64,000 bases of DNA from Fasciolopsis buskii. Its lineage: Eukaryota; Platyhelminthes; Trematoda; Plagiorchiida; Fasciolidae. Of this stretch, positions 26,301 to 62,119 are shown in pieces. Within the stretch, counting starts at the first letter, position 1. Each line of letters starts with the position of its first letter. The notes beneath the pieces are model-generated. The model was not told the DNA's origin and made no database searches. It saw nothing but the letters and a program-made list of their open reading frames with translations. The DNA is taken from assembly GCA_008360955.1 (NCBI GenBank), contig LUCM01005979.1, positions 173,216-237,215 of the forward strand. Reading direction: 5' to 3'. Both the position numbers and the translations under genes were made by a program.

Positions 26301-27004
26301 CAGAGTAGCTACAAGCAATCTGAAAAATATCCAACATTTGCTAGAAAATAACTGGTAGATGCGTCCCAGCTTCTTCAATTAAGTCATTTTATCACACGTG
26401 GTGGTTTATGAACGGCAACTTGTCGAGAATCCGTGATGGTGGTCAATGGCATGACTCCGCATCCGTGTGTACTTTAAAAATATGCGCCCACAAGCACGCC
26501 AAAGTGATTTTCGAAAACGTGACATAGTAGACCATTTGAAGGTCGTTGGAATAAGCGTATTGTTTCATAACCATTTCTATCGATTTGCCCGGTGGTTAGT
26601 CGAATAGACTTCAAGCTGAATAAAAAACGACAGAGAAATATGGTTGTAAATGCGTTCGATTAAAGTTATCTACCAATCACATGCGCCTGTCGTTTCTGAT
26701 GCGACTAACCGTTTAAGAAAACAACAGCTTTTAGTTGTTTACTGTGCAGTCAATTATCGTCAGTTCAAACAATTATCACTCCACTCCTGGTGCTACCGAT
26801 CCAAAGTTTTAACTCTAAAGACCTTTGTTTGGGAACCGGGTGACGGGGTCTGTTTCAAACAACGTTCTGATGAATATATTTAGACCGTGCAGAGGGACGT
26901 TATATTTTGAATAGAAGTATGCTGAATATGTGCTGAAGGATATACACACGAGCGAATAACTTTATTGCAAGCAAGTAAATTTTTCTGACATCAAAATATT
27001 CTTC
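23336..27004. other. No recognised gene
   Basis: It holds the 12-bp hairpin at 25148 and, near 26250-26280, a possible FYVDD scrap of a decayed reverse transcriptase. The frame 25719-26105 has a good acceptor (TTTTTCAG at about 25802) but no domain I recognise. Confidence 0.4.
25148..25176. repeat. Perfect 12-bp hairpin
   Basis: ATGAAACAAAAG and its exact reverse complement CTTTTGTTTCAT are separated by five T residues. It is not followed by a T-run on either strand and has no neighbouring gene; function unknown. Confidence 0.8.
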
Positions 27005-37750: not shown

Positions 37751-37886
37751 TCAGATTTTCGGCAATTTCGGCGCAGTGACTACTGGATTGGAATCAATTA
37801 ACGTCCGTCGAGCTTCCGCTTTGTAGTCAAACGGACAGGCGTGAACCTCTGCATAGCGATGGCGAGAACAGAAGTTTCGACCGCAA
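37751..37886 (-). CDS. ZFAND4: ZFAND4 terminal exon: second half of AN1 zinc finger and C-terminus
   Basis: A short last exon of 44 residues plus a TGA stop (37753-37751), preceded by the acceptor ATTGTTTCTACAG. It completes an Arg codon (CG|T) and reads CGRNFCSRHRYAEVHAC, then FDYKAEARR and finally NPVVTAPKLPKI. With the preceding exon the zinc ligands are C-x2-C-x11-C-x1-C-x4-C-x2-H-x5-H-x1-C, a full AN1 pattern with all eight ligands intact. The AN1 finger and the short conserved tail are the strongest family signature. The intron cuts the finger between ligands 3 and 4. Confidence 0.96.
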
Positions 37887-40800: not shown

Positions 40801-43693
40801 AGATCCACTGATTCACTGTCATACATGTCGGCGTTGGGCAGAACATTTTGGGGTGGGGTTTACTTGGTCAACTGATAAAGTGGGGCTCCCACTAATGCCT
40901 GCAAGCGAACCAGTGCAGGTCGATATCAATTTTCCATCCGAAATAGAGACCATCAGGGAAATAGGTTTTCCTGGAAGGCATAAGACAATCGGCCTTCATC
41001 AAGGATGGAGGCGAAGTGTTAACGTCAGGGTTAATAAAAACCTCTGGGATTAATATAGGCAAGTTAACAGATCTCTAAGGTTTGGTGTGCATCGGTGACC
41101 GCATCGCTTAACAAGAAAGATAACAGATCCTCACCTGAAAACGATAGGGAATAGTTTTGTAAGTGTCGCATGTTGACTACATGCGAGCATTTTTCGGCGC
41201 CGCGTGCGTTTGTCCGTGAGAATCAAGCCGGAGAAATCCAATTCACTTAGCCAGTTTCTGTATTCGAACAACCGAAGTCAAGTTCGTGCTCGTGACAATC
41301 CTTTACCCGACTGCACCACGAGGTGGTGCTCGTCAGGGTTGCTCCCTTTCACCCTTTCGTTTCAACTGTCATTTCGACGACAATGGAAATCGACCCTTCC
41401 TCGTGTGGAAATAGTAACGCTGATATTTGCTCATACAGTAAGTTGTTTGACCTACAACACGAAGATGTTGCCTAACTGAATGAGGACTCTGGTAAGTTGT
41501 CGGAAGCTCGAACGAGTCCAGACGTTTGGAATGGGTTTTGTACCTTCGAATTGTGAAATGCTTTTACTGGTCTGGATTGGCTCGAACGTCAACCTTTTCC
41601 TTGCAGAGAAAGAACTGCGTAAGGTAAACATATTTTATTGCGTATGTACCCATATCTTATCTGATGGTCCAACATCGGATGGACCGTCCGCGCGTATACA
41701 GAAGACTTGAATGGCATTCACCAATGAGGCATTTGTGGCGTCGGTGTAATGCATGGTTATCAACGAAAATTTGGGTGTACGAAGCAGTATTGAAGTTTGC
41801 CCTGATATACGACTGCGAACATCTTCGGTGCTTGGACGCCGTTATCTTCGTCATGCTGGTAGAATATGGTGGGAGCGTCTCCGAAGGCCAGACAGTACGG
41901 GATACTAGGGTCCAAATTTTAGAAGAGGCAATTAGTCTGAAAAGATTAAGGTGATTGAAACATGTATAGCGCATGCCCACAGAACGACTGCTGTGTTCTC
42001 CAGGATGGGTCGTGATGGAGAGCGGACGACACGGAAGAAGTATGAAGACCTTAACCAATGGACTGGCCAGTGTAGGTGCAGCTAGACTACAGGATGGGGA
42101 CCATAAGATCTCCGAAGCGATAGTTGGAAACAGTTGGTGATGTGACTTTGTCGCAGTCAGGTGTTTCCGCAACCGAAGTCTTTTTTTCGTCTGTATAGTT
42201 GTCCAACTCGATATTATGCAGTCGATCTTCTGCTATTCCTCGTTCTTTTTTTGTCGCTTTTGAGTTCATGGTGTTTTGGGACAGAAATCAAAACTAGAGC
42301 AAATTAGTACATGGTTAATTGCTCCAAAAACAGCATACGAAAATCTCCTTGCTGGAAAAACACTGCAACTGACGGTGATCAGGTAATAGTGTATTTACGA
42401 AAATGAAAACCACACTGCTGCAGACTTCCATACCCGGCAGATTGCCGAAACTAGTTAAGTTACGTTTGTACAACCACTAATTCTGTACTGATTTGCCCTG
42501 GTTTTTTCTGCTACCCCACACCACCGAACAATAGTGACAGAAAATTAGAACAGCATACGACGGAAGGAAGTATAGAGAGAGGCGAAAATTCGGTTAAAGA
42601 ACATTGACTATGGCAGTTAGTCATATCACTCAAAGTCTTCAGACAGCGTTGACAAACCTCGTGGATCCCAGGCCGATAATCTAACTCGACATACTCGACA
42701 CAATCCATTAGTTGGGGTTTTCATAACCAACCAACACGTCATGGACTGATCATTCTGATTCATCTTCAAGTTATTACCTGTCTCGGAAAATTGTATTCCA
42801 GTGGAGTAAATTTGCAGACATGCGTAATACATATCCCAATCACCATAACATTGAAATTCCGTGCCTCTTTCAACAACTTAACTTCAGAATTACTAAGAGA
42901 ATAATCCTATCGTATTCTAGCAATGTTACTAAACTTTGGTTGCAGTTCCCCTCCACCACATTTGTGTATAAATACGGAATGAGCATATGTATTTGATACA
43001 GTTGGTAAGAAACAAACACAAAACAGAACTTTTGTGAATAGTTGTGCCCGAAAGCACCGAGCGGCTAGATGGTCAAAATAGGATAAAACACTGCAATTAA
43101 AAAGGAACTGGGAAAAGGCAACACTTACCGGCAGGAGTAACTATTCACAATGCCTATTTTCCTTAGACAGAGTGCGCAACGCTTACGCCGCATCCCATTG
43201 GACGAGTGAGGTTTGAGCGGAGAACGAGGACTGACTGCGGACGTGTCACCCTTACCTGGAGTTGAAGGTGCAGCTAGTGGCCTAAGGAGTGAGCCATCCG
43301 TTTTGTTCGTCGGAGTTTTCACCATCCCCAGGTTGCCACCACTGCTACCCAGACGTGAGCAGACACGGGCTCTGCTCTCACCGGCGGATAAGAGACGAAC
43401 CGGATTCAGGGACTGATCTATACACAAGAAAAGCCGAAGAGGAAAAACGCCAATTTAAGAATGAGATGTACTTGATATTTCGATACAGAACAGAAAGAGA
43501 AACTGTAATAAACAACCATGGTGTGAAACACACTGCTGAAATTCTAAAATCGCGGCTCACAGATGCAGCTTACTTAAATTTAGTTCTTACGACAACTAAC
43601 GTTGCACCAATCAGCTCTGCTGTTGGTTGCTGCTTCACAACATCGTCTGCTCAAAAAAGAGCATGAGAAATAATGAAAGATTAACTTCAAAGG

Positions 43694-43735
<42 letters not shown>

Positions 43736-46700: not shown

Positions 46701-49700
46701 GCACCCAATACCAGATTCCTGACCCCTACATTACTCACCCGGTCACTCCATCCAATCCTAGCCATACTACGCAGACATCGGTGGTCGAAAACCTCTAACC
46801 AACGAACATCTCCCACACGAATATTTCATGTCTCGCAACCGTACAACAGAACCAAGCGCATTGTAGCGCAGTACACATGACCTTTCAACTTCAGTGAAAT
46901 ATCAGGCCGACACCACAAGTGCTTCAGTCCAGCGTAAGCTGCCCGAGCCTTCGATATACGCGTCTTTACCTCTGATGCCGAGCTACCATCGTTCGACACG
47001 CAGTTACCAAGGTAGGTGAAACGGTCCACAATCATTAGTTCCTCTCCGCTCAGCACCAAGTTTGGCACTACTGTCGTTCAGTCCTGTAACAGCACTTTAC
47101 ACCTAGAATGTGCAAAGCACATGCCAAACCGAACTACAACCGTCGACAGTCTATCTAATGCACGTTGTGTATAGTCCGCAGATTCAAATAGACACACGAC
47201 GTTATCTGTGTAATCTAGGTCACAGCTTTCATCATTTCCCAGTTCGACCCCTACATCCTGAAGACCTCTTAAAGCGTCCTCCATTACCTCGTCAATGAAA
47301 AACCTGAATAAGAATGGAAAGTTAGGATACCCTCGTCGAAGACCGCTAGTAGTTTCGAATGAACATGACAGTTCACCGTTTACCCTCACGCGACCATGGG
47401 TATGCGAATACAATGCTCTCAAACAGGCTTTAGAACTTCGCTGGCATACCCTTCCGGTGGAGAGCACTGAACAGTGCTGTCCGATCCACTGAATCGAACG
47501 CACCTTTCAGGTCGGGAAAGACTACGATCGTAGGGCGCCGGTGTGTGTGTGGTGCGCGTTTCGAGTACTTGTCGAAGAGCGAATATCTAGTCGATGCAAC
47601 CTCGACCTGGACGAAATTCGGCCTGTTATACACGGATGTTGCTCTCGCGAAGAGGTGTCAAACGACGCATTATTAGCGAAGCTAACACCTCAATAACTAT
47701 CGGAATTAAGCTAATCCACGATGATTGCTACAGGCACTCCGTGTGACGTGTGATGTGAAATATGGGTCACCAAGACCGGTCGATTTTTCGCACTTATATC
47801 TCGATTCACAGATGACGTTAACCGACAAGCAAAATGAAAGGCAGAAATTTCAACAAGCAAACCACAGCTTATATGTAGGTGAAAGGATCCCGAAGACTGA
47901 GCATTTCGAGAGTCGAAGTAATGTTCAACTCTACGCGCAGCCCTTACAGCATGTGTCCGAAATATACTCCGCATTTCTTGTTTTCTATCTACACCTCAAT
48001 TTCATTTTTCTTCGTTCTTTTCTACATCGAACGGCGCGTTTGCAACGGAATAGGTGAATATGCATGGTGGACAGGGAGTGATCCCACACGGGCGAGAAGA
48101 GAAATGAACGCCGTAGAAGATAACACTTGTTCTGATCTTTGTAATTCGTCAGAAAATGGCAACGCCATCGCCAATGTTCACGGTTCATTGCCATGTCCTT
48201 TAGTGACTCCAGCTACTGAGACGAGGGATCTTTCGGACCTCAGCTACGAAGAGGTGAGACATCTACTTCACCTAAGCTGGCTGTACGTTTTTCTGTTCTT
48301 CTTTGCCGACCTCCACTCCGTGGTAGGAACAGAAAATAGGACAGTACGGTAGACAAGAGTTCGCCATATGCAACAAGTGACCCAACCGACGAAGTTTACC
48401 AAACATGATACGCTGTGACAGGATGTTTTCTGAAACGAAACCTAATACTTGATCCCTCACTCGTATACTGCTTACTCCGTTCCTCCATGCAATTCGAGCG
48501 ATAGTATATAGATATTGATAATCAGAAACCTCAAAGCAACAAACATCAATAGCACAAAAGCTCCAAGTCCCGCAACCGTACTGCAGCGCGTTTCCTGTTG
48601 GCCGTCATATTGGTTTGGTTGTGTAAGCGTTCATGCTTGTTGATACGCTTATTTGGCCTCGGATCATGTTATTTTTCTGATCCTGTCCTTTTCAGGTCAG
48701 TCGGGCGACCCCTTCGGAGATCGTTGTCTCAGCGCAGAACTTCCGCGGAATTTCAAGTCGACATTACAAGCGCTTCAGTCCAGCGTACGCCGCTCGAACT
48801 TTGGCTATAACCACGGTCATTTCCAGTACCGTGCTACCATCTTTCCTCACGAAAGTCGACACAACGAGCCGAATTTACTTTTATTAAAAGCACCACGCAT
48901 GACTGGAAGGTGTATACTCCGTGGCCGCTAGGACCTACTACGCGAGGGAAAAAAGAAACCGGCAACCATGACTCTGAAAATTGAGGTGGCATAGAATCAT
49001 ACATGTCATGTGGTACCGAGCAGGGGGGAAAGCGATCGGCAACCTTCTGCATACTAGGTAGATTTTCTTACGAAATATGACTAGTGAGCCAGGTCAATAT
49101 AGCCCCAAACCGTTATTTTTCTTATGGTCCTTGCAATATTATTGCTATTATTGTCGTGTCACTATAAGTCATCGGATATAGCAGTTTCCTTGTTATCATT
49201 CGCGGTGTTGTAGAGTATAATGAAGTCTTCAGTAGCGATCGAAAATAGCGTTATTTAATTTAGAGACAACACCAGACACAATTAAGATCAAGAAATGAAT
49301 TCTGAGCGATGAATTAAGGCCAACAACTTACTAGGAATGTTTCCAACTAAATTAGGTAGGAACTGATGATGTTGTGGCGCTCCGCTCTTCAAACCGTGGG
49401 ATAACGCACGAGGAGAAAGTACCGACGGTGGCTTTGCTAACATGGAGACGGCACAGGGCGACGGTGACATTCGCGATGTCGATTCATCCTTGTATGTGCT
49501 TGGATTTTGGCCTGATGAATCACCGTTAATCAGGAGAGCGTTTTGAGCAACCAGTGATGACGTCCCATCAATGCGGATGCATGGCAAAGTGTTAGAGCCA
49601 TCACTTGGAGGACTTGCAGAAACGATCGAGCAAGGATCGGAAGAGGCGTGTTGAATGATCGATTGCTTCGGAGATTTTAACTGCTTTTCATTCGTATTGA

Positions 49701-52700
49701 GATGGACAATTAAACTGGGTTCCGGCGGGGTAACTGTACCAAAGCGTCTCTGACGGGGTCGCTGCTCAAGATGTGAATCTGAAATGGCGCTGTGAATAAC
49801 CGGGCTGGTTCTCCCTGGGGGTGAAAGCTCTACACTGGTAAAGCAACCAGTGTTAACATTTGAGGGATGGTCAGGAAGTGTCGCAGGTGACGAACGCTGT
49901 GGGTCTTCTTTTTTCCTGCAATCTGGGTCTAAAATGGATGAAGTGGAAAAAAATCAGAAACAGTTTCAATGAAAACAAGTGACAAGTAAGCGAAGAAATG
50001 GTTCCATAGACAGTAGTGACGAGAATTCGAAAGCAATTTTCCAGTATCAAAAATTGTATGGGAAAAAACAGGTAGGAAGACGATGCGCACGTTTCATCGT
50101 TATCCTTTAACGATTTTGTTTCAAAGCGCACGGAAATAAAATGGACAATGCAAATACACCATTCACGTCACTAGCATTCCTTTCGACCTACATCCTTTAC
50201 AATTTGTGGTCAGCAACGTGTCCGGCCTAAAAAGAGAAAAAGCGACAAATGTTTATTGGAGATAACTTTCCATACCTCTAAGTCAACTCACAATATAATC
50301 CTTCGTAAAATCCAGCATGTGAGAAAATAGTGGGAAAGTAGAACTTAGACTGGTCCTCCCAAAGGATTTCCGAGTCACCCTTGGTGAGGCACACTAATAG
50401 TTTTGATCAAAACGTAGTCATAAACTCTTGGAACATGATGACGAATACTAACAACACCACCACTATACAAGGAAGACCGAACACCACGGTGGTCGCAAAA
50501 AAGCAAAAGTTATCTTGATTTTCCACTGACTAACATGACCATTCCCATGTTTGCTTAATCGACCAAAAACTTGTCGAACTGCTAGAAACTTCCGATAGGT
50601 ACACACGAAGTCCGAATACAAGTACAGCCTTTTGTTAACCTCATGAGGCATTAGCATATGGAAGAAACAAAGTACATCACAAGCAGCAAGGAGTTCAACA
50701 TGCACTTCGTTACCAGTGCGTTGTCACTCAGCATCATCATCGTCACCAACATCGTTCAGCGTTAAACAGCAAGGAAAGCCTCACTGACCGCTGCCTTTAA
50801 CCCAGAGGTACACGTTTCTATAAAAAGAGTGAATATCCAAGGAGAACAGGGAGTGGACCTACACAACCGGGAAAAGATAAGACGCTGCTGCAGCCAACAC
50901 ACGGAACACAGTCTAACTGTACTAACGCACTCTTTCAATCACTCTGAATCGATAGAAAATGACAACACGATCCCCACTGTTCACGGTTCATTGCCATGTC
51001 CTTCAGTGTCTCCAGCCAATTAGTTGACGGGTCTCTCGGACCCCAACCACGAAGACGTGAGACACCTACATTACCTAGGTTCGCTGTACATTTTCTCATC
51101 CCGCGTTGCAACGTCATCTGTTGACCTCCAGACGGTTCCTTTCATTCCCTGGGAGGAACACAAAATAGGGCACGGTATGGTAGACGAGTGTTCACCAAAC
51201 GCAACAGGTGACGCAAACAACGTAGTATACTAAGTTTCATACGATGAAACAAGCTATACCAAGAAGTGGCACCCAATACCAGATTCCTGACCCCTACATT
51301 ACTCACCCGGTCACTCCATCCAATCCTAGCCATACTACGCAGACATCGGTGGTCGAAAACCTCTAACCAACGAACATCTCCCACACGAATATTTCATGTC
51401 TCGCAACCGTACAACAGAACCAAGCGCATTGTAGCGCAGTACACATGACCTTTCAACTTCAGTGAAATATCAGGCCGACACCACAAGTGCTTCAGTCCAG
51501 CGTAAGCTGCCCGAGCCTTCGATATACGCGTCTTTACCTCTGATGCCGAGCTACCATCGTTCGACACGCAGTTACCAAGGTAGGTGAAACGGTCCACAAT
51601 CATTAGTTCCTCTCCGCTCAGCACCAAGTTTGGCACTACTGTCGTTCAGTCCTGTAACAGCACTTTACACCTAGAATGTGCAAAGCACATGCCAAACCGA
51701 ACTACAACCGTCGACAGTCTATCTAATGCACGTTGTGTATAGTCCGCAGATTCAAATAGACACACGACGTTATCTGTGTAATCTAGGTCACAGCTTTCAT
51801 CATTTCCCAGTTCGACCCCTACATCCTGAAGACCTCTTAAAGCGTCCTCCATTACCTCGTCAATGAAAAACCTGAATAAGAATGGAAAGTTAGGATACCC
51901 TCGTCGAAGACCGCTAGTAGTTTCGAATGAACATGACAGTTCACCGTTTACCCTCACGCGACCATGGGTATGCGAATACAATGCTCTCAAACAGGCTTTA
52001 GAACTTCGCTGGCATACCCTTCCGGTGGAGAGCACTGAACAGTGCTGTCCGATCCACTGAATCGAACGCACCTTTCAGGTCGGGAAAGACTACGATCGTA
52101 GGGCGCCGGTGTGTGTGTGGTGCGCGTTTCGAGTACTTGTCGAAGAGCGAATATCTAGTCGATGCAACCTCGACCTGGACGAAATTCGGCCTGTTATACA
52201 CGGATGTTGCTCTCGCGAAGAGGTGTCAAACGACGCATTATTAGCGAAGCTAACACCTCAATAACTATCGGAATTAAGCTAATCCACGATGATTGCTACA
52301 GGCACTCCGTGTGACGTGTGATGTGAAATATGGGTCACCAAGACCGGTCGATTTTTCGCACTTATATCTCGATTCACAGATGACGTTAACCGACAAGCAA
52401 AATGAAAGGCAGAAATTTCAACAAGCAAACCACAGCTTATATGTAGGTGAAAGGATCCCGAAGACTGAGCATTTCGAGAGTCGAAGTAATGTTCAACTCT
52501 ACGCGCAGCCCTTACAGCATGTGTCCGAAATATACTCCGCATTTCTTGTTTTCTATCTACACCTCAATTTCATTTTTCTTCGTTCTTTTCTACATCGAAC
52601 GGCGCGTTTGCTTCGCTTTTTCATTGCAAATTGTCACGCTGGTTCGGATTTTTGCGCGGATTAGTCCGGAGATCGTTAATTGCAGTTAGTTCTGTAGCCA

Positions 52701-55700
52701 TTAGCTTTCTACCAACGTGCTGATTTCGGTTGCTGCCTCACAGCACCATCGACTCAAACAGAAGAATGAGAACTAATGAACATCGACTGCAAAATAACAA
52801 TTTGTAGAACCAGTAGGTAGTCTTTCAACTATGGAAAATTGTATCATCGGATGAGCCTCGCCGAACTTTCTCACAACCTTATCCGTATCATCATTGTTCG
52901 GCAGTGCAGAATTTATGATCAATATATCGATAGTAGTGGCAGAGGCTTGTTATTGTTGCCTTCCTAGGTGACAAAAAATGTGTCCGCTAGGAGTGAACCG
53001 GGTGGTGACTCCATTGCAATTCCGTCTTTCTGACGACAATAGACACCACTGAATAGAAAGTGCACGTTGAATGTGAATTTTAGCAACAAATATTTAAGAC
53101 TCTCAATCGGAATTCCCATTGACATGTGCTCCTTGTCGATAAAATCCACCGTTTTTACTAGCGGCACGTTTGTGAACAGGGAGGCAGCAATCTAGTAAGG
53201 ACATAACCTTGTAGATGTTTGCTTCTTTGATAGCATCCACAGACTGAAAACCATCACATTGTGTGCTTACCAATCTATTTTTACTGGTTCAAGTTGGTAT
53301 ACAAGTCACTGAGCTGAGTCGATCATGAAAAAAATAGGATGTAAAGGAATCATGGGTTTCTTGGATTCTTGGTAGCCCATAAAGTATTGGTATATGCTTC
53401 AAATTTTAAAAAAGGGCTATGATCACTGCAACGGGATGGTAAACTGTTTTTCCGCGCGACCCGTTTGATCTGCTCCGGATGTATCTTTGCTGAATGTAGA
53501 TTCGTCACTGAGCGACTGCGATAACCTCGCAATGTAATCGCAATGTAATCGCAATGATTCAATATGGTGATCCCAGCGCACTTGTCCGGTCAACGTAAAA
53601 TAATCTGTCGATTTTGTTTCAATTATTTTAACTCTTCAGTATGGTTTCTTGTTAGTAGCCAGCAATTTCTCACCTGAAATCGACAGCCTTGATAGCATGC
53701 TGTCACCAACGCACTCTTGAAGCATTCTAACTCAGTTACCGACCTGAACATTGAATCATGTATGCTTCATGAGGGCCCCAAGAGACAGTGGGGTATGGCT
53801 CAGTGGATACCCAATAGCGCTGGAAGCTCATACACTTGGATCAATTATTGTACCACTCAGGTTTTCGATTGAGCTGCCAACTCAGATCAGTCCACGACTG
53901 AGAGGACCAGGCATGATTGGATCTCCGACTTGAGACAAGCCACTCTGTATAGCTAATCGGATCATGGAGGCATGCAAGCCGTCACACTATATCAAGGCAC
54001 AGTCTCATTGTGACGGCCGAACTACGGCCTTTACATTTCTCATATAAACAGTCAAATTACCCCAACCTACGTTCATGTCATTCTGTGCGTCGTTTACTCC
54101 GTGTTCCTGCTTCAATATGCACTGACTTTCACGTGAATATTCGGTAATCCGCATGACGTGAATGGTGTTTTGTCGTTCCACTTGGCAATCACTTCACCTC
54201 TGTTTGTTTACGCTAACCATGCATGTACCTTCCATTTATTAACCCCATCATTTCCCTATTTTGTCCTGACTTACGATGCTGCGTATTTTCTTCTACCACT
54301 ATATGGCGATGTAAAGCAACAACCAGAGTACGTCAGTGCAAGTTTAATGAGTGTAAAAAAGGAAACTGAGCCTTTATTTCATCAAGATTGGCCCTCCGTT
54401 CTTTACATCCAACTGTTCGTTTCTCCTTAATGTGATTATCGATATTTACGCCATTCTGATGACTCCGTCCCGTTTCGCTAGGCCAAATTTTTAGTATGCC
54501 CGCCCAGACAATTGGAGAAACCCTCAGCGTTCTAACTCCATGGTCTACGCCTGAGTACAGAGGATGGAATATATATCATAGCCACTAGGGTCCAATATAA
54601 GAGAATGGCGACCATGTCATTAATTTGGAGTGGCGTGGACCAAGATAAGGTCTCAAAAGATCAGGTGTGGTAACAGGGCAGGTGACGACGAATCGCCGTT
54701 TACCAGGGAAGTGATCAGTGGACCTGGTTTGAACTTCTGATCCTTTTGAGATGACAGGTGCATAATTCTCTCGGACATCACTAGTTAAAAGAAAGGCCGA
54801 AACACCCGGCATTCTTAGCCACTCACCTATGCAAGCACTAACCGGCCCCGAATTCGCTCAATTTGGATGATCGAGTGAGAACCGATGTTTCCAGCCTGGT
54901 GTCGTCGCTAGTCCGAAACTTACGGTTTTTTTCGTTCGTTACGATCACTCCCTCAAACAATTGCAGACGGTCCACTTAATTTCACTCACCTGGGAAGTTG
55001 GCTGCTTGAACCACGAGTTGTGCATGCATTAAATGCCAACCATCGGCAGCTAATTTAGTGGTTAAAAATGACTAAGTACAAGCACGATACCTGTGAGCTC
55101 AAATAATAAAGATGTGTAGTTGAAAATAATCAATTACGCATCGGGAAGCGAAGTTAGGATAGAAAACGTGATCTGGCATGTGTTTACCGCCAGCTCGACC
55201 AAGAAACAGTAATTTCGTTAGAGTACACACCAGAAAAACTAGTACAGTAAATTTGGTCACATATGAGTGATTTCTAGCCAGAGCAGAATGCCGTCACAAT
55301 AGAACGCTGATGAGCATTGTGACCACCTTATCATTGTGTAATGAAAAAGCACCAAAAACTGCAACTGACGTGATATTGAAACTGCTAATCTTATTGAAAA
55401 AAAATCACACTGGTCTACCAAGTCACAATATCGGGCTCGATGGTCCTCATGTGATGTGCTCATTTGCAGTATTAACTTAAAATGTGAGCGCGGTTTAGAA
55501 TTATTTACATGTACCTGACTATACAGATAATGGGGACAGCGAAGAGTAAAAACATTCTGGAGGATTTAGAATCCGAAGACTAAGACAAAATAACTCATCT
55601 CACCTGGAATTTGGGTAACAACAGTTTCCCGTCCTTGGACATCTCGTCGCCGGCGGCTCTGGCGTCGCACACGTGCTTCTCGCATACGACTCTTGAGATC

Positions 55701-58700
55701 TTGCACTTTTTCAGCTAATTGTGTACGCTCCTGATGCCATGCAGTTCCGTTTTGAACTCTTGATGACGAGTCTTTCCGACGCTCTCGATTACTGGTGACT
55801 CCGAAGTCCGCTTCGAACTCATTACGCCAGTTTTCCCCACTGAACGCAGCACGACCAGAATAGGAATATGAGTAAGGTGAATAGATGGACGCGACGGGGG
55901 GGCCAAACAGGAGATCCGCGGTGCGGTGGAAGAATAAGTAATCTTCCAGGTCAGCTAAGCTGTCATCATCTTCTGGACCACATGTATACGCTCCCTTGGT
56001 TTCCACGGAATCACCATCATCGTCATCATCATCATCCAAGTCATCATCTTCCGGTTCCCCCTCGCCATTTTCATCCTCATGTGCTCCAGTACCGAATTCA
56101 TATAGAGCGGACGTTCCGGCAGTATCCTGTTCTTCATCCGTTACCCCGGTGCCCCAGTGACATGCATCCGAGCTAGCAGCATGGGTCAACTCGTCTGTGG
56201 CTTCCAGAAGAGGGGAAGCTCGCGGTCTTAACCAGCCATATCGCCCACGTCCGTATCCCCGTTCATTACCACTAGTTTGACAAGGTAAAGCCAAACGATC
56301 ACCAGTCACGGATAACAAACCGGCCAGAATGGTAGCTGTAGCAGAGGATACATCCGAATTGGTAAAAGCAAAATCGTCAATCCCATTCGACGGGTTTGTT
56401 GCCGAATCGGATTGTATAATTAGGTTGAATCCGCCAGTGGGTGAGTCGCGATCGCTCCCAGGAGCAGAAGAGGGACTACTGTCATTATCCTGTTCGGTCA
56501 TCCCAACAAGTGGGAATCGGCCGTGATGCAAGGCCGACTGACTTATTGTGGTCATTTCACTGGGTTCATACAAACGCCAATAAGAAGAAAGGTCAAATGA
56601 ATTCAGCGGGTGCCGCATGCGACTAGATGAGTCAATCAACGGTGGGTAATCCAAAGGAGGCGAACTTGGACGGGCAGTCCCTTCAGTATTGCTTTCTTGA
56701 CGACCTTCTAATATTCCGGTCGCGCCTAAACCGGGACCAAAACTGTCTCCATCTGAATGAGCCTTAGATGATCTTGGTGAGGACAAGGAGGCAGGCGCTG
56801 ATGTTTTTTGGACACAGTCTAATTGGTCTGCCGGAATCTCGAGTACAGTGTTTGTAATTCCGAGAGATTCGCTTTTAAAATCCGTGGGAGCACCCGCGTC
56901 TGCAGATCCGCTGTGAATCGTATTTCTTGCTGAGTTGGACAGAGACTCTCGTTCACAAAGCCTATATCAGCAAATAAAAAAGTTTGGCATCACAAATCAG
57001 TGGCAAACCAGGATGAACAAAAACTCAAAAGTTACATCGTCATAATCACCCTACAGCGCTAAACGAGGCAAGCCATAATGACCGCCGTCTTTTCATGATT
57101 TTATAAAAAGAGTGAATATCCAAGGGAAACAGAGAGTGGACCTACATAGCCGGGAAAAGATAAGAATGCTGCTGAAGCCAACATATGGAATACATTGAGA
57201 ACAACACAAGCTCGTTTTCAGTTATTCGTTTTCATGCCAATACATAACATTAAATATGGTCTGGAGATGGTTCAAGGGAATTTGTCATCAGTTCACAACT
57301 CTAAGAATGTGTCTGTGTGTATGTGTAATTGAGCATTCTGTGTGTATTCCTCACCTGCTCCTGTGGGACCGGGTATATTGGCCGCACGACTAGGCGTTTG
57401 TCCGATCGCGTTCGTGAACACCTCCCGGTTTGGTTGAACACAGGAACAATGAGGGCAATCACTAGCGTGGTGTGTTCACACCTTGTCGAGTCAAAACACT
57501 CAGTGAACGTGACAAGTGCTTTTCGCACCATCTACAAAGTTAGGAGCGGACAATCAAGAACTGTCAAGTGTCGCATCTTGAACACAGCCGAAGCCGTACC
57601 GATCCGTTTGTGTAACACCCCTTTATGAGCTCAGAAACAATTTGTCCAGACTCTTAAACTTTCCTGGCCGACGTGTCACTATCCGACAAGTGGTCTACAA
57701 CCTGATCGTGTGACAAATTGATCAATTACACACACACACAGACGCATTCTTAGAGTTGTGAACTGATGTGACTGCAAATCGACAATTTCCCTTGAACCAT
57801 CTCCAAACTATATTTAATGTTATGTGTTGGCATGAACACGAATAACTGAAAAAAGCTTGTTCGCCACGTTGTGTTGTTCTCAATGTGTTCTGTGGGATTT
57901 TTCAAACATGGAATACAGTCTAACTGTGCAAACCTGCTTTCTCAATCATTCTGATTCGACAGAAAATGACAACACGACCGCCACTGTTCACGCTTCACTG
58001 CCATATCCTTCAGTGTCTCCAACCAGATAATTGATGGGTCATTCGGACCCCAACCACCAAGACGCAAGACACCTACTTTACTGTATATTTTCACATTCCA
58101 CTTTGCCACGTCATCTGGTTACCTCCATATGGCTTCTTCCACTCCAGATGAAGAACCCAAAATTGATCGACGTGTGTTTGCCACACGCAACACGTGATCC
58201 AACCAGCGTACTCTACTAAATCTCATAGGCTAAAATAGTGTATTCTCAGAATAATAAACTAATACTAGATTCCTAACCTCTACATTACTCACCCGGTCAC
58301 TCCATCCAATCCTAGCCATACTACGCAGACATCGGTGGTCGAAAACCTCTAACCAACGAACATCTCCCACACGAATATTTCATGTCTCGCAACCGTACAA
58401 CAGAACCAAGCGCATTGTAGCGCAGTACACATGACCTTTCAACTTCAGTGAAATATCAGGCCGACACCACAAGTGCTTCAGTCCAGCGTAAGCTGCCCGA
58501 GCCTTCGATATACGCGTCTTTACCTCTGATGCCGAGCTACCATCGTTCGACACGCAGTTACCAAGGTAGGTGAAACGGTCCACAATCATTAGTTCCTCTC
58601 CGCTCAGCACCAAGTTTGGCACTACTGTCGTTCAGTCCTGTAACAGCACTTTACACCTAGAATGTGCAAAGCACATGCCAAACCGAACTACAACCGTCGA

Positions 58701-61700
58701 CAGTCTATCTAATGCACGTTGTGTATAGTCCGCAGATTCAAATAGACACACGACGTTATCTGTGTAATCTAGGTCACAGCTTTCATCATTTCCCAGTTCG
58801 ACCCCTACATCCTGAAGACCTCTTAAAGCGTCCTCCATTACCTCGTCAATGAAAAACCTGAATAAGAATGGAAAGTTAGGATACCCTCGTCGAAGACCGC
58901 TAGTAGTTTCGAATGAACATGACAGTTCACCGTTTACCCTCACGCGACCATGGGTATGCGAATACAATGCTCTCAAACAGGCTTTAGAACTTCGCTGGCA
59001 TACCCTTCCGGTGGAGAGCACTGAACAGTGCTGTCCGATCCACTGAATCGAACGCACCTTTCAGGTCGGGAAAGACTACGATCGTAGGGCGCCGGTGTGT
59101 GTGTGGTGCGCGTTTCGAGTACTTGTCGAAGAGCGAATATCTAGTCGATGCAACCTCGACTTGGACGAAATCCGGCCTGTTATACACGGATGTTGCTCTC
59201 GCGAAGAGGTGTCAAACGACGCATTATTAGCGAAGCTAACACCTCAATAACTATCGGAATTAAGCTAATCCACGATGATTGCTACAGTCACTCCGTTTGC
59301 CCTTCTTGAGGATGGATACAATGAGTGACTCAACCCACGATAAAGCATTACATTCTTTGCTCCGACCAAAAGTTACAGAATATTTATCTATGGTGTACTT
59401 AGTTTGCTCAGTTGTTCAGACACTAGCTTCAAACATAAAAACGCACTCAATAAATCGCCAGTTTACATCGGCATATACAGTTGTGCCTCGAAGATGAAAC
59501 AGATGAAAAACGACCAAGATGAAACAACGCGGGGGAAAACGGACTACCTATCCAAATGATAAAACTTTAAGTTATACACTTTTTGTTGCAAAATCTACAT
59601 AAGTTACCAATTTCGTTGTTAGGATGCCCAAGTTACACTTTTGTCACACTGGACGATTCGGCCCCTTAATAGGAAACGAAGCGTTTTCAGAAATCATTTA
59701 ATTATGAAGGTTACTCTTCCATAGGCGTCAAGATCCGTGACCATTTTAGGGTTTTGATGCCACAGATCTTAGCCCTGTTGGTAATTTCACAAAAGAATCC
59801 ACCATTTTCTCAGTATTTTTAAATTGACGTAGTTTTAAATATTGCACGGTTGAAATTCTTTAAATGTCCGCAAAAAGATTTGCAAAAACTCGTTCTGTGA
59901 CTGGCTGTTTCACATACCAACCAAGGCCACCCAATACAACTACCTAAACGATAGAGCACACTTGATTTCTGACTTGTATTGGTGGGTCAACAAAAAACGC
60001 GCGGCAGTGTCCTGTGTTCGCCTTCTCTCTTCCGCTAGCGGGCTGGGCGAGCTGTTCGTATTCCGTGCCTTTTTCTGTCTTGTGTGGCTGCTCATTCAAG
60101 GGAGTAGCAGTCTCGTTCTATTAATTGTGCGACTACGGGGCTTGAAGACTTGAGCCCGAACTATTGTGTCGCCAACCTCAGTGTGTTCGTGTCCTGCTAG
60201 GTCGCAGGCTGCGTGCTCCTGTACTATCGTGCGACGCTAGTGCTCACGTCTTGTGCTTTAGTGTGTTTGTGTGTAGATCAACCAACTTCGGCAACACAAC
60301 AATAAGTTACTTTTGATTTCGGGTATACTGACCCTATCAGATTCGTGAATTCGAGCCGAAGTTAACCTCTAGTTCCAGACGACAGACGACGAAGTAACGG
60401 TGTTTTTCACAGTGTTCCTCTTATGATGAGCCTGTCGACCAACAATTCATCCCTAGGAGTTTAAACGATAAAATTCCTGGGGGTTCTGCTAACCGAGTCA
60501 ACTTAACGTCCTTAAAAGTAAAGAGTGAATGTTTGAAAAGTCACACAGAACACATTGAAAAACAAACGTGGCGAGCAAGCTCGTCTTCAACTATTCGTAC
60601 TCATACCTATACATTACAGTAAATATGGTTGGGAATGGATCAATTTACAGCCGTATCATTTCACAATTCTAAGAATGTGTCTGTGTATGTGTATTTGATC
60701 AGCTTCCTTGATCCATTCCCAACTATATTTATTGTTATGTAAGGAATGAATGGTTGTTGCGTTTACATAAAGTTTTTAGTGGCACCTTCTCATTCGCACA
60801 GAGCCAGATACAACTTGCCTCATAGATCGAACACAGTTTAAGATGTAGACTAAAAACATGCGGCGAGATGTCTTCATTGGTGTTCCGGAACACGATGGAA
60901 TCGGAAAAGCAGCGCAGAAGGGTTGGTACAGATAAGAACATTGATTCGGTAATGAAATAATGTGAACGTAAACAACAATTCGACAGCGAATCATATAAAT
61001 CAAAGCCCTCCTTCATGTATTCCAGGTGGCCGAATTTTCCAATCTCATCACCGACCACCGCGGCGATAGACGGTAGTCTTTTTGTTACCCATCTTGTTGT
61101 CGTGGTTGACTTTCTGGGAGCTTGTAGTTATTCAGCACCACGCTTTAAGGCCACGGTTACCGGTTGCCATAGGCTCTCAAAACCATGGAGTGTCTCAGAA
61201 TGTAATCAAACCAAAATGTAAGATGCTGATCTCGTCGCCTTAGGCCATATTGCCATGGTGAACAGATAATCGCAAACTAGGATCTAAAGATCTGGAGTGA
61301 TGAACCAACTGAAATCCTGATAAACTAGACGCGGTGGCGAGTTTGATACCATCGAGCATCCTTGATGTCAGTGAGTAAAGTATACTGTATTACTCTAGAC
61401 ATTTTAAATGGCCCCATGATTTCCTAATCCTCACCACTGTGGTACAGCGCTAAACGTCAGGGAGAGTCACACTGGATACCGGTTTTCTTACAATTCTCCT
61501 GGACTAAAAGCAAGCATAAAATTCAGGCCTACTTACCATCTTGGTGATTTAGATTTCGACGGAGAATTCTGTAAAACAGGATGCAAACGAGAACAATCTT
61601 GAATCTGTGAGGGCTCAGAATTGAGTGACGAAGTGTTCGAGGTTGTTAACTTCGACAGGCTGTTTGCAAGTAGGTCTGGGCTGTGTTCATCCACAGTTTG

Positions 61701-62119
61701 AGTTTTGTTATCAAGGCCAACAGTTTCTTGTCCAGGTGATTGTTCGTTCAGAGTGGTTTCAGAATCTCCTGTCCCACTGAGTTTAGCTTGAGGTGGATTC
61801 ACAGGACGCATTGCTTGCTTATTTGAGGTACGAATCCCTGAAGGACTTAGGACAGGCAGAGTCAACCGCGACAGTTGAGTTGAACGACTGCGATCACCAG
61901 CGATTTTGCTTAGCTTAGATATCATAGGAGTCGTGGGTGAACCCAGGTGGATGGGTGTGAGACGCAGTGGAGGTACACGGTGAGCATTAAGTGGTCCTCC
62001 TCGAAGTCCCAAGACCAAACGCAACGTTGAGCCACCCGGAATAGAATAATCATGGAGACGACGATGATCGTCAAGCTCGTCGTTTTTCCAGATCAAGTGT
62101 TGTTGTGTGACCGGTATGC
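37751..62119 (-). CDS. ZFAND4: ZFAND4-like AN1 zinc finger / ubiquitin-like protein gene (5 exons, 5' end outside window)
   Basis: Gene-level entry. Coding exons are 62119-61537, 56961-55604, 49928-49332, 43417-43129 and 37886-37751. Each junction has AG acceptor and GT donor (GTAAGT three times, GTGAG once) and the phases fit with no slack: TG+G (Trp), G+AC (Asp), A+AT (Asn), CG+T (Arg). After the first split codon the exons add to 2,961 nt, exactly 987 codons with the stop. The protein joins a ubiquitin-like domain (HLIW, HDYSI, LVLGLRGGP) to a C-terminal AN1 finger, the architecture known for ZFAND4. AN1 fingers with ubiquitin-like domains are generally tied to ubiquitin/proteasome protein quality control; the exact role of ZFAND4 is poorly known. 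It is longer than vertebrate ZFAND4 (roughly 730 residues), mainly in the low-complexity middle. Introns of about 4.6, 5.7, 5.9 and 5.2 kb are packed with retroelements. The first exon(s) were not found. Confidence 0.92.
38390..39463 (-). mobile_element. Truncated LINE-B fragment inside ZFAND4 intron
   Basis: Minus-strand copy of 12838-13911, containing the decayed endonuclease region and linker. It lies in the intron between the two AN1-finger exons. Its right end (39463) abuts a different, plus-strand LINE. Shared substitutions show that it is closer to the plus-strand copy at 44318-44815 than to the copy at 13 kb. Confidence 0.85.
39490..42085 (+). mobile_element. Highly decayed full-span LINE in ZFAND4 intron
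   Basis: A plus-strand LINE related to families A and B but much older. Recognisable islands in order: CCVSIT and IDTLTSPG (39530-39600), endonuclease AGDFNAK (40061-40081), linker IETIREIGF (about 40945), reverse-transcriptase neighbourhood FGMGFVPSNCEMLL (about 41527), RHLWRRCNAWLSTK (about 41715), and the C-terminal domain with RTTAVFSRMGRDGERTTRK (about 41985). All are broken by stops and frameshifts. It is antisense to ZFAND4. Confidence 0.7.
43129..43417 (-). CDS. ZFAND4: ZFAND4 exon: linker and first half of the AN1 zinc finger
   Basis: The acceptor TGTGTATAG ends at 43418 and the donor GTAAGTG starts at 43128. The exon begins by completing an Asn codon (A|AT), runs through a Ser/Pro/Gly linker (GDTSAVSPRSPLKPHSSNG) and ends in KRCALCLRKIGIVNSYSC plus two bases of an Arg codon. 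CALC and the Cys 12 residues later are zinc ligands 1-3 of the AN1 finger. Phase and motif continue exactly into the exon at 37886. LINE segments in inverted orientation stand on both sides (38966-39463 and 44318-44815). Confidence 0.95.
43570..43682 (+). repeat. Dispersed repeat R1, copy 3
   Basis: TTGGTTGCTGCTTCACAACA and CGTCTGCTCAAAAAAGAGCA correspond to the R1 core and are most like 52680-52785. It lies just upstream, in gene sense, of the AN1 exon at 43417. Confidence 0.45.
43698..43733. repeat. (AT)n microsatellite in ZFAND4 intron
   Basis: About 18 perfect AT units, next to R1 copy 3. Confidence 0.95.
44224..44815 (+). mobile_element. LINE-B 5' fragment (endonuclease start), plus strand
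   Basis: Plus-strand copy of the family-B 5' part: RLALKNLSAML, then VVLSERTEAALLEWIPIDSR. It matches 39463-38966 in reverse complement almost exactly, including substitutions private to that copy. It also continues about 90 bp further 5', where it matches 13998-13912. Similarity ends at about 44815, after TCAGTACGAGTTTC, where an unrelated coding-like stretch begins. Confidence 0.8.
44816..44929 (+). CDS. Coding-like fragment with consensus donor (unidentified, possible captured exon)
   Basis: Directly after the LINE-B break there is an open frame reading VSSDMKHPVIMKKALKLFHQ and then VRKHEAWRAID, ending at a consensus donor, GTAAGT, from 44930. Possible acceptors are CAG at 44806-44808 (inside the LINE copy) and CAG within 44816-44830. 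The residue composition is that of a helical globular protein, unlike the decayed sequence around it. It is antisense to ZFAND4 and inside its intron. I do not recognise the family. It could be an exon fragment carried by transposition, a nested gene, or chance. Confidence 0.3.
44930..45424. other. Intronic, AT-rich, nothing recognised
   Basis: This part of ZFAND4 intron lies between two LINE-B fragments. Apart from T-runs near 45220-45270, I see no gene, structured repeat or motif. Confidence 0.5.
45425..46161 (+). mobile_element. LINE-B reverse-transcriptase fragment, plus strand
   Basis: Plus-strand piece with FEKGSRSEYDHLKGNSL, then SKLLSPVVLPRLYN and REKQA, and after a frameshift LEYANDIASL (about 45997-46030), the same altered catalytic box as at 12.1 kb. 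It ends where a family-A LINE tail begins at 46162, so family A inserted into, or was joined to, this older element. Confidence 0.75.
46162..47735 (-). mobile_element. LINE-A 3' part, minus strand, inactive reverse transcriptase
   Basis: Minus-strand family-A fragment. The 3' tail is GATGATGATGATGCT at 46162-46176; C-terminal blocks at 46367-46816 contain DHRCLRSMARIGWSDRVSN, and reverse transcriptase at 47633-46826 contains KGAFDSVDRTALFSALHR, the NVVCLFESADYTQRALDRL region and FTYLGNCVSNDGS. The catalytic YADD of the 28-kb copy is YTDN here, so the enzyme would be dead even without the frameshifts. It forms the left part of the duplicated 1,882-bp block. Confidence 0.85.
46162..48043 (-). 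repeat. 1,882-bp duplicated block, copy 1
   Basis: Matches 50730-52611 with constant offset 4,568 and no indels. I noticed only about three substitutions (near 46174, 46507 and 46639). It contains the LINE-A 3' part plus about 300 bp of other sequence (47736-48043) that also occurs in the second copy. The inclusion of non-LINE flank and the identical dead reverse transcriptase point to segmental duplication, not two retrotransposition events. Confidence 0.9.
48044..48860 (-). mobile_element. Second, more diverged LINE-A 3' fragment
   Basis: It begins exactly where the duplicated block ends. Minus-strand pieces show the 3' end (GTGAATAT ... ACAGGGAGTG), a degraded tail domain (MAMNREHWRWRCHFL), RRLGHLLHMANSCLPYC (about 48350-48400) and, further 5', VRAAYAGLK-like residues near 48780. 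It is clearly less similar to family A at 28 kb than the neighbouring copies and is broken throughout. Confidence 0.65.
49332..49928 (-). CDS. ZFAND4: ZFAND4 exon: Ser/Pro-rich linker, symmetric phase
   Basis: The acceptor is a clean pyrimidine tract followed by TTTTAG, ending at 49929; the donor is GTAAGT from 49331. The first two bases complete an Asp codon (G|AC) and the exon then reads PDCRKKEDPQRSSPATLPD and continues open for about 198 codons to NLVGNIP. The composition is Ser/Pro/Thr-rich without a known fold, matching the linker region of the family. The length is exactly 597 nt with the same phase at both ends, so it could be skipped without a frameshift. It lies between two near-identical 1.9-kb direct repeats (46162-48043 and 50730-52611). 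Confidence 0.9.
50730..52611 (-). repeat. 1,882-bp duplicated block, copy 2 (LINE-A fragment plus flank)
   Basis: Second copy of 46162-48043, in the neighbouring ZFAND4 intron and in the same orientation. It contains the same LINE-A fragment with YTDN catalytic box (51646-52071), the C-terminal domain (50935-51384) and the same 300-bp flank. The sequences diverge completely on both sides. Together the copies bracket the exon 49332-49928. A collapsed or mis-joined assembly is the main alternative to a true duplication. Confidence 0.9.
52680..52785 (+). repeat. Dispersed repeat R1, copy 4
   Basis: GCTGATTTCGGTTGCTGCCT and CATCGACTCAAACAGAAGAA match the R1 core; the copy follows shortly after the right end of the duplicated 1.9-kb block. 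Confidence 0.45.
52955..53450 (-). mobile_element. Penelope-like element reverse-transcriptase fragment
   Basis: Translated from the minus strand, the blocks in order are LWATKNPRNP and IPLHPIFFMIDSAQ (about 53400-53300; the family's 'PKxHKP..PLRPI' region), QLEPVKI, SLFTNVPLVKTVDFI and KYLLLKFTFNVHFLFSGVYC, then RQKDGIAMESPPGSLLAD (about 53030-52975; family 'YRQxDGxAMGSPLGP'). This order is specific to Penelope-like reverse transcriptases. Several stops and frameshifts are present and the catalytic YVDD region was not found. It is a dead fragment in ZFAND4 intron. Confidence 0.75.
53526..53555. repeat. Short 11-bp tandem repeat
   Basis: TCGCAATGTAA is repeated about 2.6 times. Confidence 0.8.
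53785..53995 (+). repeat. tRNA-like dispersed repeat (possible SINE)
   Basis: GGTATGGCTCAGTGGATACC resembles a polymerase III A-box region, and AGGTTTTCGATTGAG is a weak B box. The 3' part (TTGAGACAAGCCACTCTGTA) recurs at 63365-63445 as TTGAGATAAGTTATTCTGTA. A tRNA-derived SINE is likely but not proved. Confidence 0.4.
54588..54775. repeat. Dispersed repeat, pair with about 30990-31140
   Basis: The shared core GGAGTGG, AGATCAGGTGTGGTAACAGG, CGCCGTTTACCAGGGAAGTG and ACTTCTGATCC is seen in diverged form at 30990-31140 (AGATCAGGTGTGATAACGAG and following). Its opposite strand contains AGTTCAAACC, a B-box-like motif, so a SINE is possible. Confidence 0.4.
55604..56961 (-). CDS. ZFAND4: ZFAND4 exon: large low-complexity acidic middle and basic helical segment
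   Basis: The largest visible exon (1,358 bp, about 452 codons). The acceptor TGATATAG ends at 56962 and the donor is GTGAG from 55603. It opens with the last base of a Trp codon. The protein is Ser/Pro/Gly-rich, has a strongly acidic run (EPEDDDLDDDDDDDGDS, about 56010-56060), then a probable helix near its end (QLAEKVQDLKSRMREARV, about 55670-55720) followed by an Arg-rich patch (RRQSRRRR) that could bind RNA or act as a nuclear signal (inference). No catalytic motif is seen. The exon is asymmetric in phase (enters 2, leaves 1), so skipping it would shift the frame. Other ORFs in this interval are shadows. Confidence 0.9.
57040..59345 (-). mobile_element. LINE-A fragment interrupted by a Penelope-like insertion
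   Basis: The 3' end is at about 57040-57194 (AGTGAATATCCAAGGGAAAC), resumes after the inserted element at 57908, and continues through C-terminal domain and reverse transcriptase to about 59345 (GATTGCTACAGTCACTCCG and LINE sequence matching 28560). From 57908 to about 58280 it is diverged from the 46/50-kb copies, while 58280-59287 is almost identical to 46726-47733 (constant offset 11,554; I noticed two substitutions). The catalytic box is again YTDN. Confidence 0.85.
57195..57907 (+). mobile_element. Short Penelope-like element with GIY-YIG nuclease and inverted terminal arms
   Basis: The ends are defined by a 10-bp target duplication, ATGGAATACA, at 57185-57194 and 57908-57917. An uninterrupted relative at about 62819 shows the empty site. 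The plus-strand frame 57340-57720 reads CSCGTGYIGRTTRRLSDRVR (GIY-YIG start with GYIG, Arg and EH), then CSHLVESKHSV, FRTIYKVRSGQS and TAEAVPIRLCN, typical of the C-terminal endonuclease of Penelope-like elements. Arms at 57195-57340 and 57725-57907 are inverted repeats of each other (for example TTCACAACTCTAAGAATG and its complement), and the right arm is longer. The reverse-transcriptase part is missing, so this is a 5'-truncated or internally deleted copy. Confidence 0.8.
59738..60301 (+). repeat. LTR-like dispersed repeat, copy 2 (ZFAND4 intron)
   Basis: Partner of 34828-35379. The most conserved block is 59990-60110 (GCGCGGCAGTGTCCTGTGTT ... GCGAGCTGTTCGTATTCCG). The AATAAA of copy 1 is AAAAAA here. 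It is plus strand, antisense to the host gene. Confidence 0.5.
60530..60760. mobile_element. Penelope-like terminal-arm remnant, foldback structure
   Basis: The left part matches the arms of the element at 57.2-57.9 kb (TTGAAAAGTCACACAGAACA, TTCTAAGAATGTGTCTGTG). The segment around AATATGGTTGGGAATGGATC (about 60623-60642) is repeated in inverse at about 60709-60733, so two arms face each other with about 70 bp between and no coding sequence. It lies in ZFAND4 intron. Confidence 0.6.
61537..62119 (-). CDS. ZFAND4: ZFAND4 exon: second half of ubiquitin-like domain plus Ser/Thr/Pro-rich linker
   Basis: The acceptor (TATTGTTTTAG) lies just left of 62122 and the donor is GTAAGT at 61536-61531. 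The exon opens inside a Gly codon (G|GC) and reads GIPVTQQHLIW, then HDYSI and STLRLVLGLRGGPLNAHRVP. These are the last strands of a ubiquitin-like fold ending in the RGGP typical of ZFAND4. About 135 residues of Ser/Thr/Pro-rich, probably disordered linker follow, ending SKSKSPR with two bases (TG) of the next codon. An in-frame Met lies upstream inside the intron side (62174), but the good acceptor and the half-domain argue against it being the true start. Confidence 0.92.

What the first reader, a model, noticed from the sequence alone, without database searches (positions are those of the whole stretch)
37751..62119. A five-exon ZFAND4 gene with very long, transposon-filled introns
Only the two largest exons stand out as long ORFs. 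The AN1-finger exons (43417-43129 and 37886-37751) are short, and the last (44 residues) is easily missed. All four junctions agree in phase and the finger comes out with all eight ligands. About 88% of the 24.4-kb span is intron. An automated annotation is likely to have split or truncated this gene.
Basis: partly seen in the sequence, partly recalled or inferred. Interest (0 to 1): 0.75.

Follow-up and report, generated by a model that had tools for sequence, protein, structure and literature searches.

The report
Fluke ZFAND4 gene, first exon missing

Summary
The five exons are real: GT-AG junctions, phases that agree, each covered by orthologous proteins. The gene is ZFAND4 of a digenean fluke, 89% identical to an unnamed 4.65-kb contig and 67% to annotated Fasciola gigantica ZFAND4. 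The interpretation needs correcting. The model has no start codon and begins at position 34 of the ubiquitin profile. Full-length relatives have about 34 more residues, and no match to them was found in the window. So there are at least six coding exons and the 5' end lies outside the window. Repeats found within the window cover about 42% of intron bases, as expected in repeat-rich fluke genomes (PMC8519440, passages). Five of 11 annotated fluke orthologues lack the finger. Two by-products are more interesting. A roughly 74-residue segment after the ubiquitin domain is found in 110 of 110 further non-flatworm ZFAND4 sequences, as a remnant in 4 of 4 cestode sequences, and in 0 of 19 trematode sequences. 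A second, very divergent gene elsewhere in this genome has the same two domains and the same two intron positions.

The parts
61537..62119 (-). Second coding exon of ZFAND4 (first in the window): ubiquitin domain from Gly35 on, then linker; 583 bases, starts in phase 1
55604..56961 (-). Third coding exon: linker with acidic run, SLADLEDYL motif and predicted helix; 1,358 bases
49332..49928 (-). Fourth coding exon: linker with RRFGTVTPP motif; 597 bases, phase 1 at both ends; alternative acceptor would start it at 49922
43129..43417 (-). Fifth coding exon: linker and first part of the AN1 finger (ligands 1-3); 289 bases
37751..37886 (-). Sixth and last coding exon: AN1 ligands 4-8, APKLPKI end and stop; 136 bases
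   Evidence: 44 of 44 residues identical to P0001
46159..48043 (-). Repeat with reverse-transcriptase fragment in the intron after the 49928 exon
   Evidence: RVT_1 23.2 bits, below the 29.6 cut-off
50727..52611 (-). Near-identical copy of the repeat (4 differences in 1,885 bases) in the intron before the 49928 exon
57906..59342 (-). Third copy of the repeat, 92% identical to 46331-47745, in the intron before the 56961 exon

Best explanation
The locus is the ZFAND4 (ANUBL1) gene of an unnamed digenean fluke related to Fasciola, minus its first coding exon, which lies beyond the window. The full protein should have about 1,020 residues: an N-terminal ubiquitin-like domain, a long, mostly disordered linker with an acidic run and a helix, and a C-terminal AN1 zinc finger. 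Shown: the gene model from the second coding exon on, and orthology. Inferred: the ubiquitin-like domain is a permanent part of the protein, because its RGG is followed by proline and the positions of ubiquitin Lys48 and Lys63 are Asp and Gly, while Ile44 and Val70 of the binding patch are kept. The likeliest job, by analogy with other ZFAND proteins, is an adaptor between the proteasome or ubiquitin receptors (ubiquitin-like end) and partners bound by the AN1 end. That last step is untested here; I give it about even odds.
For: Spliced model with consistent phases. zf-AN1 above cut-off, ubiquitin profile 34-70. 14 homologues, the 11 named ones all trematodes. P0001 covers residues 35-1018 on exactly these exons; 885 of 986 window residues identical to P0001 and 677 of 986 to F. 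gigantica. Groups with F. gigantica and P0001 in a tree of 23 rows, support 97/91. The AN1 exon region matches one place in the genome. Relatives' residues 1-34 have no match in the window. Alignment of the F. gigantica protein with ubiquitin. Disordered linker in the F. gigantica model.
Against: No RNA from this species was available, and the transcript nature of P0001 is inferred from its length. The ubiquitin half in the window is below Pfam's cut-off on its own (19.2 against 25.4 bits). The first exon was not found: part of the adjoining DNA reads N and the rest of the upstream contig gave no match. Junctions 1 and 2 lie in poorly conserved linker (F. gigantica matches only 11 and 12 of 30 columns there). 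The review passages give 'N/A' for ZFAND4 function, so the adaptor role is analogy (PMC11799193).
Confidence: 0.94

Rival explanations
1. The gene really has five coding exons and starts in the open frame of the 62119 exon, giving a protein with half a ubiquitin domain.
For: The frame is open upstream of 62119 as far as 62258 and contains an ATG (MYFITFPD...).
Against: An acceptor sits exactly where the relatives' GIP begins; the upstream reading does not resemble the relatives' first 34 residues, which are strongly conserved. Half a ubiquitin fold is unlikely to be stable (general knowledge).
Confidence: 0.03
2. The locus is a decaying pseudogene.
For: First exon not found; introns full of repeats.
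Against: No stop or frameshift in 986 codons, intact splice signals, all eight finger ligands, 44 of 44 residues of the last exon identical to P0001.
Confidence: 0.02
3. The AN1 exons belong to another gene and were joined to the ubiquitin exons by the reader.
For: Introns of 4.6-5.9 kb separate the parts.
Against: Single orthologous proteins in other flukes hold all parts in this order. In three other AN1 genes of this genome the profile match, and a CAG just before it, fall ahead of the third ligand, not behind it as here.
Confidence: 0.01

Closest known systems
AN1-type zinc finger protein 4, Fasciola gigantica (P0002)
   Same: Same domains and order, same C-terminal end, aligns to all five window exons
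   Different: Has the N-terminal half of the ubiquitin domain that the window lacks; 67% identity; linker differs
ZFAND4 of other animals (e.g. P0058 Callorhinchus, P0044 Mercenaria)
   Same: N-terminal ubiquitin domain, one C-terminal AN1 finger, APKLPKI end
   Different: They carry a conserved segment after RGGP that was not detected in the window protein or any trematode sequence tested; they lack the SLADLEDYL and RRFGTVTPP motifs
A20/AN1 proteins (ZFAND3, 5, 6)
   Same: AN1 finger; a solved chain named AN1-type zinc finger protein 5 matches the window finger at E 3.4e-17
   Different: They have an A20 finger and no ubiquitin-like domain (ZFAND3 and 5 rows of the table in PMC11799193, passages); Pfam reported no A20 in the window protein

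Membership tests
ZFAND4 (ANUBL1) | One AN1 zinc finger at the C-terminus with eight zinc ligands | tested here: met
   PF01428 33.1 bits, cut-off 27.9, residues 929-964 of 986; ligands read in the translation
ZFAND4 (ANUBL1) | Ubiquitin-like domain at the N-terminus | tested here: inconclusive
   Only the second half lies in the window: profile 34-70 of 72, 19.2 bits, below the cut-off of 25.4; that half is 96% identical to P0001. The first half is not in the window
ZFAND4 (ANUBL1) | No A20 finger | tested here: met
   Pfam reports only zf-AN1 and ubiquitin at E up to 1
ZFAND4 (ANUBL1) | Groups with named ZFAND4 proteins | tested here: met
   With F. gigantica ZFAND4 and P0001, 97/91, in a 23-row tree rooted at the midpoint for drawing only
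ZFAND4 with the post-ubiquitin segment, as seen in other animals (my own label, not a published definition) | Conserved segment of about 74 residues after RGGP | tested here: not met
   0 of 19 trematode sequences including the window protein, and nothing in six frames of the window (best E 4.3)
Non-LTR retrotransposon (intron repeats) | Reverse transcriptase and endonuclease domains | tested here: inconclusive
   In the introns only a sub-threshold RVT_1 fragment (23.2 bits, cut-off 29.6); its 86-87% identical relative at 27000-28582 overlaps a frame with RVT_1 66.1 bits and lies beside an endonuclease frame at 29092-29952. Any RTE-clade name would be recalled, not tested

The most novel reading that the evidence does not exclude
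Parasitic flatworms rebuilt ZFAND4: the near-invariant segment that follows the ubiquitin domain in other animals decayed in cestodes and vanished in trematodes, two new conserved motifs (SLADLEDYL..LFGPP and RRFGTVTPP) arose in both groups, and a second, fast-evolving gene with the same domain plan appeared. ZFAND4 would then have changed partners in this lineage, and the lost segment is an undescribed functional unit of animal ZFAND4.
Probability: 0.5. Interest if true: 0.4.

Novelty: new member of a known kind. Interest (0 to 1): 0.22.

Why it matters
The gene model corrects the exon count and gives a near-complete ZFAND4 for another fluke. The comparison singles out a conserved segment of animal ZFAND4 for which Pfam shows no family in the proteins scanned and which the trematode sequences tested lack; it points to where an unknown function of ZFAND4 may sit. 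Otherwise the locus is ordinary.

Tried and rejected
First exon: I looked in the rest of the window and in the readable part of the upstream contig and found nothing. Part of the contig next to the window reads N, so the exon may lie there; I cannot tell. A whole-genome search with the ubiquitin domain, in which only the best candidates are scored, gave five places: this gene's second exon; two on C4971, which belong together as another gene; and weak matches on C2448 and C5802 (36% and 32% identity) that cover both halves of a ubiquitin-like domain. None is a convincing first exon for this gene.

Missed internal exon for the lost segment: the segment profile finds nothing significant in six frames of the window (best E 4.3), and P0001 aligns fully without an extra exon.

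The C4971 gene on a tree: its branch is 4.25 changes per column, so its place is not determined.

Structure models support the ubiquitin fold, a helix and the finger. The post-ubiquitin segment is a helix plus hairpin at low confidence in the hemichordate model (block means 46-66), so I ran no fold search. A genome-wide copy count of the intron repeat was asked for seven times and never answered, so 'transposon' rests on window-internal repeats and Pfam.

Selection effects: the 110 further non-flatworm sequences came mostly from a search with a protein that has the segment (the best 120 of 834 listed), so forms without it could have been passed over; birds and mammals dominate them; some are unnamed contigs counted as non-flatworm by similarity. 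P0013, P0017 and P0019 of the trematode set are incomplete or have no Pfam ubiquitin domain listed. P0001, P0006 and P0007 are unnamed contigs counted as trematodes by similarity. No free-living flatworm or monogenean was among the named hits.

Full report
What is there. On the minus strand, five exons at 62119-61537, 56961-55604, 49928-49332, 43417-43129 and 37886-37751 splice with GT-AG junctions and consistent phases into 986 whole codons ending APKLPKI-stop. Introns make up 87.8% of the 24,369-base span. The protein carries a zf-AN1 finger (33.1 bits, cut-off 27.9) and the second half of a ubiquitin domain (profile 34-70 of 72, 19.2 bits, under the cut-off of 25.4).

Is it more than chance. 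A search of about 5.8 billion proteins (7,993 candidates scored) gave 14 hits; the 11 that are named are all trematodes. The best, P0001, is an unnamed 4,651-base contig encoding 1,018 residues; since the genomic exons span over 24 kb, it is presumably a transcript (inference). tblastn of P0001 on the window gives five blocks that meet at the predicted junctions and cover residues 35-1018 except residue 229, which sits on a junction. 885 of 986 window residues are identical to P0001 and 677 of 986 to F. gigantica ZFAND4. Around the four junctions P0001 matches in 19, 24, 28 and 30 of 30 columns, F. gigantica in 11, 12, 22 and 29 of 30; the first two lie in poorly conserved linker. In a 23-row tree the window protein groups with these two (97/91).

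The first exon in the window starts with an acceptor and in mid-domain. Orthologues with an N-terminus begin about M(LM)DLFIETLTGVSFELHVSPxETVMSIKSKIQRAE|GIP. That stretch has no match in the window nor in the readable part of the contig upstream. The window is bases 173216-237215 of contig C3531 in a 703-Mb, 6,974-contig assembly. Part of the adjoining DNA reads N, so the first exon may be there. The gene therefore has at least six coding exons, and the 987-residue product is an incomplete protein.

A small doubt remains at the fourth coding exon. Its acceptor is tandem, TTTTAG|ACCCAG|AT. P0001 reads QIPNCRKK, two residues shorter than the window's QIPDPDCRKK, and fits the second AG (49922); the F. 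gigantica protein has the length expected of the first (49928). Both keep the frame.

The introns. Window-internal repeats cover 59, 33, 55 and 22% of the four introns, 0% of the five exons and 15% of 1-37750; weighted, about 42% of intron bases (arithmetic). Ten translated frames were scanned with Pfam: RVT_1 above cut-off in one (27889-28422), Exo_endo_phos_2 above cut-off in one (29092-29952), sub-threshold RVT_1 in two (47081-47506, 12173-12574), sub-threshold DUF6451 in one, no family in five. The two frames above cut-off lie outside the gene. Two copies of one repeat, 46159-48043 and 50727-52611, differ at 4 of 1,885 bases and flank the 597-base exon in direct orientation. LINE-rich introns, and gene annotation fragmented by them, are described for Fasciola (PMC8519440, abstract and passages).

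Annotation. Of the 14 hits, 9 carry both domains by the precomputed Pfam column. Leaving out the three unnamed contigs, 6 of 11 annotated proteins carry both and 5 lack the finger.

Family context. In this genome, seven places pass the zf-AN1 cut-off: two on C6250, and one each on C6717, C3531 (this gene), C4085, C5343 and C4971. In the C6717, C4085 and C5343 genes the recognisable finger sequence runs from a G-(I/F)-x-C just after a CAG, which puts the likely intron before the third ligand (their donor sides were not examined). Here the intron falls in the Arg codon between the third and fourth ligands. This speaks against the AN1 exons belonging to one of those genes.

The C4971 gene has its own first ubiquitin half (MLIFIRALAGTVIRLNVRPCETVENVKSRIAHLKG), a phase-1 intron in the same Gly codon, a second ubiquitin half (GIPVSQQHLIF...), and further on an AN1 finger with all eight ligands, split in the same Arg codon in the same phase. 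The exons between were chosen by frame and splice signal only and are candidates. I read it as a paralogue; two shared intron positions in two domains are the argument. Its last exon ends without APKLPKI, and the fluke motifs and the post-ubiquitin segment gave no significant match in the 30 kb examined, some of which reads N (best E 0.034 for the SLADLEDYL profile, outside the gene model).

The lost segment. Thirteen non-flatworm ZFAND4 proteins share a segment of 75 alignment columns after RGGP, 42 of them invariant. A profile of it finds 110 of 110 further non-flatworm sequences at E below 1e-10, 4 of 4 cestode sequences at E 0.0016-0.014 over a short stretch only, and 0 of 19 trematode sequences (best E 32). 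Pfam shows no family there in the two non-flatworm and two cestode proteins scanned. Conversely, the SLADLEDYL..LFGPP motif was located in 16 of 19 trematode sequences and RRFGTVTPP in 16 of 19; profiles of them match 3 of 4 cestode proteins and 0 of 123 non-flatworm ones at E below 0.01. A third profile, of the helix after the acidic run, matches 3 of 4 cestode and weakly 5 of 123 non-flatworm proteins at that level, so that part may be shared by all. Caveats on sampling are under Tried and rejected.

How it probably works. Read against ubiquitin (alignment of the F. gigantica protein), the window keeps Ile44 and Val70 and has Asp for Lys48 and Gly for Lys63; its RGG is followed by Pro. From general knowledge, a proline after the Gly-Gly is a poor substrate for deubiquitinases, so the domain should stay attached. 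The F. gigantica model shows the ubiquitin fold at block-mean pLDDT 86-93, a helix at 655-691 (57-87), the finger region (58-79), a low-confidence helix at 583-599 and otherwise disorder (overall mean 41.4). The likeliest role is an adaptor with a ubiquitin-like handle and an AN1 handle. A review's passages list proteasome interaction for ZFAND2B, 3 and 5, give N/A for ZFAND4 in the table, note its raised expression in some cancers, and name it in a sentence on inhibitors of NF-kappaB activation (PMC11799193, passages). Text searches found ZFAND4 in 61 papers (25 listed) and ANUBL1 in 36 (10 listed); I saw listings only, apart from that review, and cannot say that no functional study exists.

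Verdict. A real, ordinary gene, correctly named, with its first coding exon outside the window and the exon count therefore wrong. The comparative by-products are worth more than the finding itself.

Noticed in passing
Genome contig C4971, about 178098-200880 (loci L007, L010-L013, L020): A second, very divergent gene with a ubiquitin-like domain and an AN1 finger, whose introns split both domains at the same codons and in the same phases as the window gene; a likely ZFAND4 paralogue.
   Followed up: partly
46159-48043 and 50727-52611: Two direct repeats, 4 differences in 1,885 bases, flank the 597-base fourth coding exon, which is phase 1 at both ends: recombination between them would remove 199 residues in frame, or they may mark an assembly or recent-duplication effect.
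   Followed up: partly
Non-flatworm ZFAND4 proteins, e.g. P0044 about residues 75-150: A strongly conserved segment without a Pfam family, detected in 110 of 110 further sequences and in none of 19 trematode sequences.
   Followed up: partly
12832-13909, 38384-39461 and 44322-44813: Copies of another repeat, 97-99.8% identical, in both orientations, two of them in introns of this gene; no Pfam family in the frames scanned.
   Followed up: no
P0073 and P0018 (public proteins): Likely annotation slips: P0073 is named MARCHF8 but carries the ubiquitin and AN1 domains of ZFAND4; P0018 repeats a long stretch that includes part of the finger.
   Followed up: no
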